A DNA stretch of 64,000 nt from Apostichopus japonicus. Its lineage: Eukaryota > Echinodermata > Holothuroidea > Aspidochirotida > Stichopodidae. Below, piece after piece: positions 20,761 to 58,290 of this stretch (position 1 is the stretch's first letter; each line of letters opens with the position of its first letter). The notes beneath the pieces are model-generated. The model was given only the letters and a program-made list of their open reading frames with translations, did not search any database and was not told where the DNA came from. Location of the stretch: NCBI RefSeq assembly GCF_037975245.1, contig NC_092576.1, positions 4,542,001 to 4,606,000 on the forward strand. Reading direction: 5' to 3'. The translations under genes were made by a program, and so were the position numbers.

Positions 20761-21164
20761 GCAACATTTACCAGATAAAATAAAAAGTGGTGTTAAATAC
20801 TCGAATATACAGAATTGGAAATAAACGTCATTTGCATCTAAATTGTGAAATTAATGCGTTTTAATGTAAATTGCCATTTTAATAAGCGGTGTAAGATAGG
20901 AGTGGTGTTCGCAAGAACGCTAGTTTATTAATGGTTTGGCCTTGACTATAGTAGTAACCAATGCTGTGAAGACCAATAAACAGCAGTGACCTTCTTAACC
21001 TGGGTACTGTAGATAATTTAGATTAAACAAAAGCCTAATGAAAAAACTAAATAAAAAAAACCCTTTTAATTATAGAAAAGTTTCAAGGTTGTTCATCTGC
21101 CCAAAATTGATGATTACAGTTCCTATTTGCCAACCACCTCTGAGTTTTTGACAAGTAAGGACCA

Positions 21165-21870
21165 TATATAGTTTCAGAAATATTTAAATGATATCGAACC
21201 AAGTTGCTGGTTCAAGAAATATTTAAATGACATCGAACCAAGTTATTGGTTCAATAAATATTTATTATGAGATCGAACCAAGTTGCTACTTCAAGAAATA
21301 TTTAAATGACATCAAACCAAGTTCCTGGTTCAAGAAATATATACTATGATATCGAACCAAGTTGCTACTTCAAGAAATATTTAAGTTACATCAAACCTAG
21401 ACGAACATTCAAGAAATATTTAAATGACATTTTACTGGTTCACGAAATATTTAAATAATATCGAACCAAGTTGCTAGTTCAAGAACAATTTCAATAACAT
21501 CAAACCAAGTTGCTAGTTCAAGAAATATTTAAATGATATAGAACCAAGTTGCTAGTTCAAGAAATATTTAAATGATATCGAATATAGTTGCTAGTTCAAG
21601 AAATATTTGAATGACATTAAACCAAGTTACTGGTTCAAGAAATATTTAAATAATATCAAACCAAGTTGCTAGTTCAAGAACTATTTAAATGTTATTGAAC
21701 CAAGTTACTAGTTCAAGAAATATTTAAATGATATCGAACCAAGTTGCTAAGTCAAGAAATATTAAATTACATCAAACCAAGTTGCTAGTTCAAGAAATAT
21801 TTAAATAACATCGAATCAAGTTGCTGGTTCAAGAAATATTTAAATAATATCGAACCAAGTTGTTACCAGC
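21165..21870. repeat. 39-bp tandem array, about 17 copies
   Basis: The unit AGTTCAAGAAATATTTAAAT followed by GATATCGAACCAAGTTGCT repeats with a period of 39 bp and moderate divergence. Stops occur in all frames. Not coding. Confidence 0.88.
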
Positions 21871-22164
21871 AACAGCGCTAGCTATGTCACTCTTTATCGA
21901 TCTGGTTAGCATTTACTCACTCAGTTAAAATATGTAAACATAATTCTCCCTCAGCCTCAAAGAGGTGGATTCAAATGAGGTATATATTATATTAGTTAAT
22001 TATATAATGTCAAAATAAAATAAATTTAACTCACAGAAATAAGAAAATGACTGACCTTTAGAAAAGACGCAAACGTACCTCTTGCAACCGTTTTAGAAGG
22101 CCCCAGACTCCAACCTGAGTCTGAAACACCATCCTCAACTGCAGTTGTTAACTTATCTTCTACT

Positions 22165-24146
22165 CCCCCAGTGCAGACCTTAGGTTTCTCTCCAAAGGAC
22201 TCAACTTCTGTCCTACTCCTCCATCATTTGACCAAGGGGAACTGAGCCAAGATCTTACTCATTTCTTTCGCAGAATTTGCCTTCGTGAGTTTTTCCTATA
22301 TGATCCTTAACTGAACGGGAACCCTTCTGCAAGAAAAGTTTTTGGATGCCTCCTAAGAACAGAGTCCCTGTTTTAGAAGCCTACCGACACAAGTCGTCAG
22401 CTCTGAGACTAACCAGTCAAACTCTCCTCTCCGCAGAACACACGACAACCTTCCAAGAGATGAGCGTACAGCACTCTCCCCACTGATGTCTCGCGGTGAC
22501 ATTATCATTAAGCCAGCCGACAAAGGTTCTGCAGTTGTCATCCAGGATCGATTACATCAGGAAGCCATACGTCATCTCTCCGACAGTGATATTTACACTA
22601 TTCTTGGTTCTGATCCCACAGTTATTTTCTCCCAGAAGATAAAACAGACCATCACTGATATGTACCAGCGGAACCAGATCTCTAAGAAGGCTGTTTCTTT
22701 CCTTTCTCCCACAGGTTATAAGGCAGCCAGGTTTTATCTCCTGCCCAAAATTCCCCTGGTAGGCCTATCATCTCAGGCAATGGGTCCCCCATCGAAAAGA
22801 TATCCTTGTTTGTGGACCACTTCATCAAACCTCTTGTTCCTCAGATTAATTCTTATATCCATGACACTCCAGATTTCCTCAGGAAACTTGAAGATATCAA
22901 GAACCAAATCCCCAGTGCATCCATTATCGGTACTTTCGACGTCACTTCTCTTTACACTAACATCCCTCATGCTGAAGGTATCGCAGCCACGTGTGCTGAT
23001 CTAAGAAGGTCCACCCTTGTCCACCCATCTCTGACATCAAAGTTCTCATGCAACAGGTTCTCACCAAACCTTCAAAGACACGGGACTGCCATGGGAACCA
23101 GGATCGCTCCTTCCTTTGCTTGTCTGTTTATGTCTAGCCTTGAAGAACGCATGCTCAGTACATCTCCCTGCCGTCCCCTTATGGCGCTACATTGGTAACA
23201 TCTTCTTTGTTTGGACCAATGATGAGGATAGCCTGCTCACCTTCATCAATCACATCAATTCTTTCCACAGCACCATCAAATTCACCTCTGAGTACTCTCA
23301 CCAACAGGTTAACTTTCTCAATGTGACTGTTCGCAAGGAACACGGTTCTCTCTCTACAGACTTATACACCAAGCCCACAGCACACACCAGTATCTCCATT
23401 CTTCAAGCTGCCATCCCCGTCACTGCAAGTCTGGAATTGCCTACAGTCAAGCACTTCGTCTTCGTCGCATTTGCTCTAACAATTCCTCTTTCATTCGCCA
23501 TACAGATGCTTTGGAAAAACACCGTACTGCAAGGGGCCATAGTGCTTGAAGGGTGCGTGAAGCAATTCAGAGAGTCCGCACACTTTCCAGATCATCTACT
23601 TTGGCAGTGAAGGACAAAAAGGGACGAGATTGCGACAACAAGCTTCCCCTGGTTGTTACTTTCCACCCAAATCTTCCTCCTTTTCAGAAAATCACCTCTA
23701 ACAACCACAACATTCTCCTCACTTCAGATAGACTCCAACGAGCCGTCCCTGAAAAACCCACCATCGCCTACAGACGACTACGCAACCTACAAGACCTTCT
23801 TGTGCGTGCTGCTGTTCCACCTCTAACTTCTAACCCTACACCCATTCAGCATGGTACTTTCAAATGTTATCGTACTTTGAGATGCATCATCTGCAGCCAC
23901 CACATTGTTGAATCCAATTCCATCACCAGCCACAGCATGCAACTCACACACAAGACTAAGGGTCACATCACTTGCACAACCGCCAATGTCATCTATCTGA
24001 TCTCTTGGAGAGTTTGCGGCATCCAGTATGTCGGCGAAACCAAAACCACCCTCAAGAAGCGATTCTATTGTCACAGATCCACAGTCAACACCATGAAGAC
24101 TGAGACCCCAGTTGGAGAACATTTTAACCTTCCCAACCATACCATT
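22165..24146 (+). pseudogene. Penelope-like retroelement (RT plus GIY-YIG), decayed
   Basis: Reading across several frames gives the Penelope order: an N-terminal region (FCPTPPSFDQGELSQDL, FFRRICLREFF), RT motifs (IIIKPADKGSAVVI; FDVTSLYTNIPH; GTAMGTRIAPSFACLFM) and a C-terminal GIY-YIG endonuclease (VIYLISWRVCGIQYVGET). The catalytic YIDD region reads YIGN, and there are frame changes near 22770, 23150 and 23550 and stops near 22310-22400. A short deletion is likely before GTAMGTR. The 3' end is interrupted at 24147 by a repeat with CAGGTGCGTA ends. No intact protein is possible. Confidence 0.9.
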
Positions 24147-44759: not shown

Positions 44760-46487
44760 AACTGCTACAGTTACCAACATAAGATCAAGAATGTTTGCAG
44801 CATCGGGAGTTGGAACCACTTTACAATATATGTAGCACATAGCTAAATAGGTGAGAATGGTTGGAACAATGTGTACTAGACTAGCCAATTCAAAAGTTAC
44901 TCTGAAATGTTGTTAGAGATACACAAGTTTTGCAAAGTATTCCTAAAGACATCCAATCCATTACCCTTGTTGGAAAATCTGTGCAAGTCTTAGTGATATA
45001 TTCTGCTAGCACCAGTAAGGTTCTATTGTATGAATGATAGCACAGGTTGGAGATTGCATCGCTCAATACAAAGGGGAACAATAGGTTCTATTGTATGAAT
45101 GATAGCAGAGGTTGGAGATTGCATCGCTCAATACAAAGGGGAACAATAGGGTCTATTGTATGAATGATAGCACAGGTTGGAGATTGCATCGCTCAATACA
45201 AAGAGGGAACTATATACATTAACGTGAGTGGGACTTGTGAACTCAAATGCTGTGGAGTGATGCCTAAAGGTTGCACCTACTGAGAAGTATTAGGCATCAA
45301 CTATTAGCAACACATTGCTGCATAAATGGTAACAGTGGTGGTATTGCTCAGTAAGAGGTTACACTGATGCATTCTGAGAGGTACGTACTGCAGGACCAGT
45401 GCGTTCTCATTAGCATGTTCATAATCACAACCACATGAAACAGTGAAATGTCACATGTCGTGAGAAGTGATGGTGTCTCATGACTGCATTTCTAGAATAT
45501 CAAAAGAAACATTTTCTTCTGGTGACAAGAATGAGCAAGCTGTTGCAATTCTTGGTAGTTTTCAATTTAACAAGGGAATGACAAAAGTATACAACCTCAA
45601 TATTCTAGGCACATATTTTAGGACTGGCTTAAAAAAAAAATGCCACGATTATTTTAACCGCTCATTACGTATATATGCATGATCGGGGAAGAGATGACTG
45701 TGCGTCTGTTCGGGTTTCACAAGTTAATAACAATAAATTTAGAGAGCTCCTAAGATTTATTGATACTGTGACACTACTGTTGATAAATACATTTATTACG
45801 TCTATATTTTTTTTATAGGCCTATGAGTTTCATTGTTAGCCCCTATATCAGTACCCCAATGTTTTAACAGACTATTGAGGTACAGTCCCTGAAAGGCCCA
45901 ACCACTCTGCTCATTTGCCACCCCCACTAGGTCCCTTTTTGTCATGTAAAACCAATATAAATGATACCAAAAAACCTAATTATTAATTTACACCTAAAGT
46001 TCCCATATGGCTTCCCCTCAGCATATACGCTACTGCTACCATCAGAATACCCTAGCGTGCTGTTCTATGTATGTATGTATGTATGTATATATATATATAT
46101 AGATATATATAAAGATATATTTATATAAATATAGATATATATAAATATAGATTTATAATATACATAATTGAAAATCGTAATTGTAATATATATATATATA
46201 TATATTGCAATTACATTTTTCAATTATATATATAAATATATATTGAGGTTAAGAGACAACACAAACAAGATTATCTTGATGTTCAATTTATTTACAGATT
46301 TTTTTTATCAGTGGAATGAAAGAATTAAAGTTATAGGGTTTTACATTGACAATGTACACCTCAAACCAAAGGAGTGAAGTATTTCTGATTTCAACTCCAG
46401 ATACATGTGACAATGACAACATCAAGAAGTGTTTATATATATAGAAAATAATGCAAAATGATGATCTGTACTTGACTCACACTTGGA
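44760..46487. other. TAF8 3' flank
   Basis: Contains three copies of a 65-bp unit at 45014-45205 (GGTTCTATTGTATGAATGAT ... GCATCGCTCAATACAAAG) and a TA-rich microsatellite at 46070-46235. No exon recognised. Confidence 0.6.
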
Positions 46488-47095
46488 GCTTTGTAGTTGT
46501 ACTCATACCAAGAGGAACTCTCTTTGTACTCATACCAAGATGAATTCTGCTAGTACTCATACCAAGAAGAATTCGAATTGTACTAATACCAAGAGGAATT
46601 CTCCTTGTACTCATACCAAGAATTCTCTTTGTACTCATACCAAGAGGAATTCTCCTTGTACTCATACCAGGAGGAATTCTCTTTGTTTTCATACCAAGAG
46701 GAATTCTCTTTGTATTCATACCAACAAAAGTTCTCCTTGTACTCATACCAAGAGGAATTCTCTTTGTACTCATACCAAGAGGAATTCGAATTGTACTATT
46801 ACCAAGTTGAATTCTCTTTGTTTTCATACCAAGAGGAATTCTCTTTGTACTCATACCAACAGGAATTCTCCTTGTACTCATACCAGGAGGAATTCTCTTT
46901 GTACTCATACCAAGAGCAATTCTCTTTGTACTCAAACCAAGACCAATTATATTTGTACTCATACCAAGAGGAGTTCTTGTACTCATACCAAGAGGAATTC
47001 TCTTTGTAGTTCGTACTCATACCAAGAGGAATTCTTGTACTCATACCAGTCCTGAGAACCATCCTTGTACTCATATGAAGGGGAATTTTTCTTTG
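46488..47095. repeat. 27-bp minisatellite between TAF8 and MFAP1
   Basis: About 22 copies of CTCATACCAAGAGGAATTCT CTTTGTA. The period of 27 is a multiple of three, so long open frames arise on both strands. Not considered a gene. Confidence 0.9.
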
Positions 47096-47865
47096 ACTCT
47101 TACCTACACTGCTCTACTTGTACTACAAGTCTGAAGTAAGACAATGTTCAAAGCAGACTCAACTGGAATGATACAGACAAACCCTTTAAACTCTTTGATA
47201 TCTGAAGTTCTTACTAGATCTGAGGCAGAAACTCTCACCTTATTCATATTATACCAGGGTACATCAATTTGAAAGTTGCTTCTCCTACCAACCCTAATGA
47301 TAATTAACTTAAGATATAAACATAAAGTGAAATCAATCACCATTTGCAACACTCATTTACCGATCCTTCCATTTTGAGACACAAGCTGATTTTTATCACG
47401 GACATTACTTGGCATCTTTATCAACCATTAAAATACTTGTAAAGATTGCATTGTTTTTATGACAAATAGTCTGGTATATAGAGCTACAGTTTTCATTTGT
47501 TATAATTCTTTTACATTTGTTACTGAAGAATGTCACCCATGGGCTGTTGTGCCTACCGACATATTGCCATGGAAACAGTACATGGCTGGAGTCTGACGTA
47601 AAAGGTTCAAGCTGCTGTTTCCTCTTGCTTATGAAAGGTGCTAGTTTTTGTCTGTGGCACGCCAAATGTGCCAATTGTCTCAAAACTCCATTTTCAAAAC
47701 CCTGGTTGGTTCGGTGAGTCTGTAACAACTTATGCCCCAGTCCGCCTGTGAGGTAACCTGTGTCTTTTCACATTTATACGATTCATGTTGAAGGCGCAAA
47801 GTTCGTCCTTCTTTTTGTTGAACTTAAACCGCACATCCCTGTTTGAAACATCGTCTACAAATGAT
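47096..47865. other. MFAP1 3' flank, no gene recognised
   Basis: No exon, array or element was recognised in this stretch between the two minisatellites. Confidence 0.4.
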
Positions 47866-48265
47866 CACAACATGTACGCATCTGACGCAACATGTACGCA
47901 CCTGACGCAACATGTGTGCACCTGATACAACATGTACAAACCTGATACAACATGTACGCACCTGACCCAACATGTATGCACATGAGACATGTACAAACCT
48001 GAAACAACATGTATGCACCTGACACAACATGTACGCACCTGATGCAACATGTGTGCACCTGATACAACATGTACAAACCTGATACAACATGTACGCACCT
48101 GACCCAACATGAGACATGTACAAACCTGAAACAACATGTATGCACCTGACAACATGTACGCATCTGACAAACCATGTACGCACCTGATAGAACATGTATG
48201 CATCTGACATAACATGTACTGACCTGACACAACATGTACGCATCTGACACAATATGTACACATCT
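47866..48265. repeat. 20-bp minisatellite with E-box-like cores
   Basis: Units of ACAACATGTACGCACCTGAC with length variation. It is about 55 bp downstream of the MFAP1 stop codon (48320), possibly inside the 3' UTR. Each unit has ACATGT, and many have CACCTG. Confidence 0.88.
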
Positions 48266-57750: not shown

Positions 57751-57779
57751 AGTTTAATCACGATAACACAAAACTGCTA

Positions 57780-58290
57780 GCAAACTGCTTATCCACAGAA
57801 GAGCCTGGGTAAGAGAATGAGTAAAAGTTAGAGGGCCTGACGTTTCGATCCAAGCAGGATCTTCTTCAGAGGCTGAATGACAAGTAACAGTAACAGAAGG
57901 GATACATACAAAAGAGATAAATATAAGAGGATTGATAGACAAGGGATTTCTGATTCCAAATGGTAGGCTACAACACGTCGTAAGCCATTCAAGGTGATTC
58001 CATCTTTTATCGAGATTTCATCTCTGACGTGGAAATATGTTTGTGTGCTTGGAGGTAGGTTGTGTTTGTCCTCTGGCAAACCATTATTCTTGTCCAAGAC
58101 CCGGGCATTATTTTGCCCTTAGCTGTTACAATTAATGTGAGTGCGCCCTCACATCCTCTATCGAAACATCTGTCGTTTAATAATAATTCCCCTGACAAGC
58201 AGCTTTGAGGACGGGCGTCCTCAGTTAGTTCTATAATTCGACGAGATATATATTTAGAACGAGTGCATTGCAGCAATCATCTGCTGATCT
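57780..58290 (-). mobile_element. Penelope-like terminal-repeat fragment (putative)
   Basis: Assigned because of the hammerhead fold at 57835-57873. Such minimal type I hammerheads are known from the pseudo-LTRs of Penelope-like elements. Open frames to the right of it (minus 58276-57828) show no RT or GIY-YIG motif. The borders are approximate. Confidence 0.5.
57835..57873 (-). ncRNA. hammerhead ribozyme, minimal type
   Basis: Read on the minus strand from 57873: stem I 5' strand GCCT (57873-57870); box CTGAAGA (57869-57863), matching CUGANGA; one A; stem II GATCC (57861-57857), loop TGCTT, GGATC (57851-57847); box GAAA (57846-57843); short ACGT stem III; GTC cleavage triplet ending at 57839; then AGGC (57838-57835), pairing with GCCT. 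All conserved core positions are present. Stem III is only about two base pairs, as in retroelement hammerheads thought to act as dimers. Confidence 0.8.

What the first reader, a model, noticed from the sequence alone, without database searches (positions are those of the whole stretch)
57835..57873. Intact-looking hammerhead ribozyme on the minus strand
All core elements of a hammerhead are present in order: CUGANGA, a 5-bp stem II, GAAA, a GUC cleavage triplet, and a 4-bp stem I. The very short stem III (palindromic ACGU) suggests dimeric action, as in Penelope-like elements. The window's recognisable Penelope-like body is 34 kb away and has no ribozyme that I could find, so this is a separate solo terminal fragment.
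Basis: partly seen in the sequence, partly recalled or inferred. Interest (0 to 1): 0.75.

Follow-up and report, generated by a model that had tools for sequence, protein, structure and literature searches.

The report
Penelope-element dimer-type hammerhead ribozyme fragment
A short stretch of this animal genome is a leftover end piece of a Penelope-like jumping gene and still carries that element's small self-cutting RNA motif, a kind already known from this class of jumping gene, present here in over a thousand copies.

Summary
In detail: on the minus strand, 57835-57873, GCCU-CUGAAGA-A-GAUCC-UGCUU-GGAUC-GAAACGUC-AGGC has every hammerhead core element in order. Rfam does not call the motif, nor four loci of its own family, open-frame tandem copies included.

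It is not isolated. The exact-stem motif occurs 1197 times in the 672-Mb genome; the reversed control finds 0. It sits in the terminal repeat (pLTR) of a Penelope-like element with ~950-codon RT/GIY-YIG frames, in tandem at 3252 bp, one hammerhead per unit. The window's PLE body (22035-24146) is the same family without its ends. The hammerhead copy is a separate ~156-bp fragment, 57756-57911.

Best reading: a minimal type I hammerhead that acts as a dimer through palindromic ACGU, a published kind (Lunse 2017, Cervera 2014; seen only as cited). Cleavage is untested, and copy boundaries show no excess of 5' ends at the predicted cut. Unexpected: head-to-head copy junctions favour the ACGT palindrome (9 of 23 PLE-type junctions).

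The parts
57756..57911 (-). Solo pLTR fragment of a Penelope-like element (from -41 nt of the hammerhead to +83 nt after the predicted cut, relative to the tandem unit in L043)
   Evidence: local alignment to the L043 tandem junction; window:57700-58000 has 48 matches in G000, itself included, the others at 81-95% identity (40 of 1806 candidates scored)
57870..57873 (-). Stem I, 5' strand (GCCU)
   Evidence: sequence, fold
57863..57869 (-). Core box CUGAAGA (C3 to A9)
   Evidence: sequence
57862..57862 (-). Unpaired extra A between A9 and stem II
   Evidence: sequence; the pattern requires it (1197 copies); (no A there; 100 of 141 rows listed, reversed control 323) most family-like rows have another base there or a 3-base deletion; same position as the extra A of the CChMVd plus hammerhead (PMC3705267 passage)
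57857..57861 (-). Stem II, 5' strand (GAUCC)
   Evidence: sequence, fold
57852..57856 (-). Loop II (UGCUU; the commonest form among the rows listed is UGCUA, which allows a sixth pair)
   Evidence: (first 100 places listed)
57847..57851 (-). Stem II, 3' strand (GGAUC)
   Evidence: sequence, fold
57843..57846 (-). GAAA core
   Evidence: sequence
57840..57843 (-). Palindromic ACGU, stem III only as an ACGU:ACGU dimer helix
   Evidence: sequence; that no loop is possible in a monomer is inference
57839..57841 (-). GUC cleavage triplet; predicted cut between 57839 and 57838
   Evidence: sequence; cleavage itself inferred
57835..57838 (-). Stem I, 3' strand (AGGC)
   Evidence: sequence, fold
22035..24146 (+). 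Truncated body of the same PLE family (RT and GIY-YIG parts), without hammerhead
   Evidence: 93% identity to positions 634-2805 of the unit cut from L043; ORFs; G000 protein search

Best explanation
The feature is a minimal type I hammerhead of the dimer-acting kind found in the pLTRs of Penelope-like elements, here in a dead solo pLTR fragment. In relatives of this genome with open frames (tandem 3252-bp units) a multimeric transcript would carry one hammerhead per unit. Two of them pair through ACGU:ACGU, giving a 4-bp stem III, and each cuts after GUC, yielding unit-length PLE RNA. Shown: the motif, its family, its place in each tandem unit, and its uniform sequence in young copies. Inferred from published PLE hammerheads: dimer action, cleavage, and perhaps the need for PLE protein (PMC11167929). 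For the window copy itself I expect little or no activity, as no second hammerhead of the family was found in the window.
For: Core elements and stems present. 1197 exact-stem copies against 0 for the reversed control. PLE coding sequence upstream in the same orientation in L005 and L032, its matched end about 430-455 nt before the hammerhead. L043: three hammerheads at exactly 3252-bp spacing; the previous frame ends 312 nt before a hammerhead, the next open frame starts 63 nt and its first ATG lies 222 nt after the predicted cut. RVT_1 (E 6.7e-9) and GIY-YIG (E 3.2e-4; 21.4 bits, below its 22.6 cut-off) in that frame. Young copies: 0 of 546 hammerhead positions changed against 30 of 1693 flanking positions; without L043, the reference, 0 of 429 against 30 of 1267; copies are not independent. 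Literature passages: PLE hammerheads are minimal, lack helix III and may cleave as dimers (PMC7761336); palindromic stem III tip plus tandem arrangement required (PMC6466107).
Against: No Rfam hammerhead match to this copy or to the four PLE-family loci given to Rfam. Fold energy is unremarkable. No convincing covariation: 45 matches with a changed stem II start (reversed control 4; a few unrelated) look like decay, with one compensated GGTCC/GGACC copy (C23:13478190). Old copies against their own consensus: 29/819 in the hammerhead, 137/2846 in flanks, p 0.13; subfamily differences 0/39 against 9/142, p 0.21. 5' junctions at the predicted cut (7 of 37 candidates) are not in excess of control sites -4 (11 of 12, 6 of them palindromic) and +5 (4 of 10). 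Of 49 alignments that reach the cut, 48 run at least 16 nt past it, so those templates were not cut there.
Confidence: 0.88

Rival explanations
1. The motif is a hammerhead-like sequence kept for another reason (RT or endonuclease recognition hairpin in the PLE RNA, or a DNA-level site), and does not cleave.
For: No Rfam match; no 5'-end excess at the cut; the 3' ends of copies lie just downstream, +21 to +30 (16 of 49) and +69 to +87 (27 of 49), so the region is near the start of reverse transcription; the extra A departs from the consensus core.
Against: All core residues and a 4-bp stem I are present together; an extra A in this place occurs in a natural hammerhead (PMC3705267); PLE hammerheads are reported to cleave (title of Lunse 2017 as cited in PMC7761336; PMC11167929 passages, there only with PLE protein).
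Confidence: 0.1
2. A retrozyme (small non-autonomous circular-RNA retroelement) rather than a PLE terminal repeat.
For: Many copies are short and solo; L025 has two direct copies about 299 nt apart, a retrozyme-like spacing.
Against: The tandem unit is 3252 bp with an RT/GIY-YIG frame; metazoan retrozymes are small tandem repeats with canonical type I hammerheads (PMC7229834 passages).
Confidence: 0.03
3. A chance match to the hammerhead consensus.
For: Sequence-only matches occur in viral contigs: 80 of 120 stretches examined, the scan having stopped at its limit.
Against: None of those 80 has a 4-bp stem II in place, the window copy has; 0 in 100 shuffles; 1197 against 0 in the genome; one in each unit of a PLE tandem array.
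Confidence: 0.01

Closest known systems
Minimal type I hammerheads of Penelope-like elements (Cervera & de la Pena 2014; Lunse, Weinberg & Breaker 2017; neither is held, known here through passages of PMC7761336 and PMC6466107)
   Same: pLTR position, tandem arrangement, no helix III in the monomer, palindromic stem III tip
   Different: Unpaired extra A before stem II; whether this occurs in published PLE hammerheads could not be checked
PAc (Poseidon of Anolis carolinensis) hammerhead (PMC11167929, passages)
   Same: PLE hammerhead at the pLTR; two insertion-end classes; insertion does not need cleavage there and shows no sign of it here
   Different: [quoted passage not shown] here the first ATG is 222 nt after the cut
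CChMVd plus-strand hammerhead (PMC3705267, passage)
   Same: Unpaired A directly after A9
   Different: Viroid, not a PLE
Newt and axolotl satellite/retrozyme hammerheads (PMC6155905, PMC7229834, passages)
   Same: Dimer action because of a short stem III
   Different: Small repeats without coding capacity

Membership tests
PLE minimal type I hammerhead | Hammerhead core CUGANGA, stem II, GAAA, NUH triplet, stem I open | tested here: met
   one extra A
PLE minimal type I hammerhead | Lies in the pLTR of an element coding RT and GIY-YIG | tested here: met
   (GIY-YIG 21.4 bits, just below the 22.6 cut-off); window copy by homology
PLE minimal type I hammerhead | Palindromic stem III tip | tested here: met
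   ACGU
PLE minimal type I hammerhead | Tandem hammerheads in the genome | tested here: met
   for the family: L043, three at 3252-bp spacing; not for the window copy, the only profile match in the window
PLE minimal type I hammerhead | Self-cleavage as a dimer | not testable with these tools
   needs in vitro transcription
Rfam RF00163 Hammerhead_1 | Score at or above gathering (34 bits) | tested here: not met
   window and L043, L005, L013, L032; also no match at E<=10
Metazoan non-LTR retrozyme | Small (about 170-400 nt) tandem non-coding unit | tested here: not met
   unit 3252 bp with a long frame; one ~299-nt direct pair, in L025
Penelope-like element | RT plus C-terminal GIY-YIG, tandem copies, tail variants at the 3' end | tested here: met
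   (GIY-YIG just below its cut-off)

The most novel reading that the evidence does not exclude
The stem III palindrome has a second job at the DNA stage. PAc protein cuts and extends both target strands (PMC11167929), so two convergent cDNAs of the same RNA could be joined by annealing only at a palindrome. Here head-to-head copies are joined at ACGT in 9 of 23 PLE-type junctions, against 3 at GGCC, 1 at GATC, none at TCGA or at the ribozyme cut, and 10 asymmetric (50 of 53 sites listed). The dimer helix of the ribozyme may thus also set where paired cDNAs end and fuse, giving the head-to-head PLE pairs.
Probability: 0.2. Interest if true: 0.55.

Novelty: new member of a known kind. Interest (0 to 1): 0.3.

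Why it matters
The role of PLE hammerheads is called a mystery in a review (PMC7761336 passage). This genome holds a PLE family with tandem open-frame units and more than a thousand copies of a uniform hammerhead. Its copy boundaries bear on whether insertion uses cut RNA (no sign of it here) and on what joins head-to-head copies (here, often the stem III palindrome).

Tried and rejected
Rfam on the window, two sub-windows and six loci: no hammerhead in the window or in the four PLE-family loci. Sub-threshold matches SpF10 sRNA (19.4 bits, gathering 60) and CRISPR-DR7 (18 bits, gathering 37) were dismissed as chance.

Covariation inside the family: a pattern for an altered stem II start gave 45 matches (reversed control 4), one for no extra A gave 141 (reversed control 323, so mostly background; 100 rows listed). 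Read by eye, the family-like rows are decay or slippage variants of the GATCC form; no independent stem II alleles.

I examined 80; none has a 4-bp stem II in place. The rest were not examined.

5' ends at the ribozyme cut: no excess. Of 37 candidates, all read, 25 are hammerhead copies with a changed C, 4 internal deletions, 1 the ACGT palindrome with one change, 7 junctions to unrelated or rearranged sequence. Control -4: 12 = 6 ACGT palindromes, 5 other junctions, 1 internal deletion. Control +5: 10 = 4 junctions, 5 internal deletions, 1 insertion. Classified by eye. The filters let through 3/4, 27/64 and 27/64 of random junctions, so scaled counts are about 9, 12 (palindromes left out) and 9.5. 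Only copies with intact tail letters up to ATTC were sought.

Papers: Cervera 2014 and Lunse 2017 are not held. A full-text search for three stretches of the motif returned two papers on other subjects (listing only).

Full report
What is there. The minus strand at 57835-57873 reads GCCT CTGAAGA A GATCC TGCTT GGATC GAAACGTC AGGC. This gives a 4-bp stem I, the CUGANGA box, a 5-bp stem II, GAAA, and a GUC triplet with the predicted cut between 57839 and 57838. The monomer cannot form a stem III with a loop: only ACGU is available, which can pair with a second ACGU (inference). An unpaired A after A9 is described for the CChMVd plus hammerhead (PMC3705267, passage), so it does not exclude catalysis. 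The motif is not expected by chance (1 match; 0 in 100 shuffles), but the fold energy alone is unremarkable.

Rfam. No family reaches gathering in the window, and no hammerhead appears at lax thresholds. At gathering the same holds for L043, L005, L013 and L032, which carry the family, while canonical hammerheads in L044 and L001 are found in the same call. Rfam's type I model does not see this minimal form in the loci given to it.

The family. The exact-stem pattern occurs 590 + 607 times in G000, with 0 for the reversed control. The window stretch has 48 matches, itself included (40 of 1806 candidates scored); a profile of the terminal part finds one copy in the window. L005 and L032 carry PLE coding sequence upstream in the same orientation, the matched end about 430-455 nt before the hammerhead (the query stops short of the frame's end). 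A protein search with the window's PLE body listed 150 matches (150 of 1931 candidates scored), many at 94-95% identity, with open frames up to 953 codons, some at 3252-bp spacing. L043 shows three hammerheads 3252 bp apart, with two 949-codon open frames between them. The previous frame ends 312 nt before the hammerhead; the next frame opens 63 nt and its first ATG lies 222 nt after the predicted cut. Pfam: RVT_1 E 6.7e-9; GIY-YIG E 3.2e-4, 21.4 bits against a 22.6 cut-off.

The window. The body at 22035-24146 equals unit positions 634-2805 at 93% and lacks both ends; no match to the unit follows 24146 until the hammerhead copy. That copy is a separate fragment, 57756-57911, from -41 to +83 relative to the unit. 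Its loop II is UGCUU instead of the usual UGCUA, which costs one possible pair.

Constraint. Ten loci chosen by the PLE protein, not by the hammerhead (L034-L043, 14 alignments of at least 90 nt), have 0 of 546 hammerhead positions changed against 30 of 1693 in flanks (p 0.0004). One of the 14 is the reference itself; without L043 it is 0 of 429 against 30 of 1267 in 11 alignments (p 0.0002). The copies share ancestry, so these p-values are too good. The window copy differs from the young consensus at 1 of 39 hammerhead and 17 of 103 flanking positions (p 0.025). Old copies (21 alignments from L013-L032) against their own consensus show no significant difference (29/819 against 137/2846, p 0.13), as expected for dead copies; subfamily consensus differences are 0/39 against 9/142 (p 0.21).

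Ends of copies. Of 49 alignments that span the hammerhead and reach the cut, 16 end 21-30 nt after the cut and 27 end 69-87 nt after it; the rest end at 0, 16 and 200 (one each) or run through to 260 (3). The second group is inflated by loci chosen with the window sequence. Among the 15 from L034-L043 the two groups have 6 each and 3 run through. Two insertion-end classes recall the two reverse-transcription starts and the 'tail' of PAc (PMC11167929, passages). In 48 of 49 the copy extends beyond the cut, so its template had not been cut at that hammerhead (inference); copies ending before the cut were not counted. Nor do 5' ends pile up at the cut: scaled counts are about 9 at the cut, 12 at -4 and 9.5 at +5. 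This agrees with the PAc result that hammerhead mutants still insert.

Head-to-head junctions. At -4, six of 12 hits were inverted repeats centred on ACGT, with different outer flanks. A search for short inverted tail pairs gave 53 sites, 50 listed; its reversed control gave 31. Of the 50, 27 are not PLE and 23 PLE-type: 9 ACGT-centred (7 exact, 2 with one change), 3 GGCC, 1 GATC, 10 asymmetric, none of these at TCGA, and none at the cut (TCGA judged by eye from the ten printed). Against equal use of four palindromes, 9 of 13 has p 0.001. The null was chosen after seeing the data, and the search pattern misses junctions inside its arms (L217 is one). The simplest reading is that two convergent cDNAs join through the palindrome.

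Placement. PLE hammerheads are described as minimal type I motifs lacking helix III, in tandem, possibly cleaving as dimers, with unknown role (PMC7761336, passages); palindrome and tandem arrangement are named as requirements (PMC6466107, passages). The primary paper on dimer cleavage (Lunse 2017) was seen only as a citation. The find is a new member of this kind; the unpaired A may be a variant, which I could not check against the primary papers. The organism was not identified.

Noticed in passing
G000, e.g. L044:1501-1543, L045, L046, L001-L004: A separate interspersed repeat with canonical type I hammerheads: 50 of 70 listed RF00163 matches are over gathering (74 of 66307 candidates scored); 7 loci read. 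It has A/B-box-like sequence just upstream (my reading; ARAGORN and Rfam call no tRNA there). In 4 of the 7 the stem III tip is a 6-nt palindrome, ACCGGT (3) or ACGCGT (1), as for a dimer helix; in 3 it is not. Looks like an Sm-alpha-type SINE (name recalled)..
   Followed up: partly
G000 head-to-head PLE junctions, e.g. L204, L207, L209, L213-L215: Inverted repeats of the PLE tail centred on the hammerhead's ACGT palindrome; 9 of 23 PLE-type junctions among 50 sites listed.
   Followed up: partly
L025:1473-1903: Two direct hammerhead copies about 299 nt apart without PLE body between them: a retrozyme-like short tandem derived from the PLE pLTR.
   Followed up: no
window 24147 to about 26100: Sequence without match to the PLE unit follows the PLE body directly; it starts with a long G run, and a 102-nt repeat occurs three times at about 710-bp spacing (24467, 25183, 25891).
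   Followed up: no
window 21126-21898: Array of 39-bp tandem repeats shortly before the truncated PLE body.
   Followed up: no
window 46477-47055 and 47824-48263: Two stretches of repetitive open frames in several phases, probably tandem repeats.
   Followed up: no
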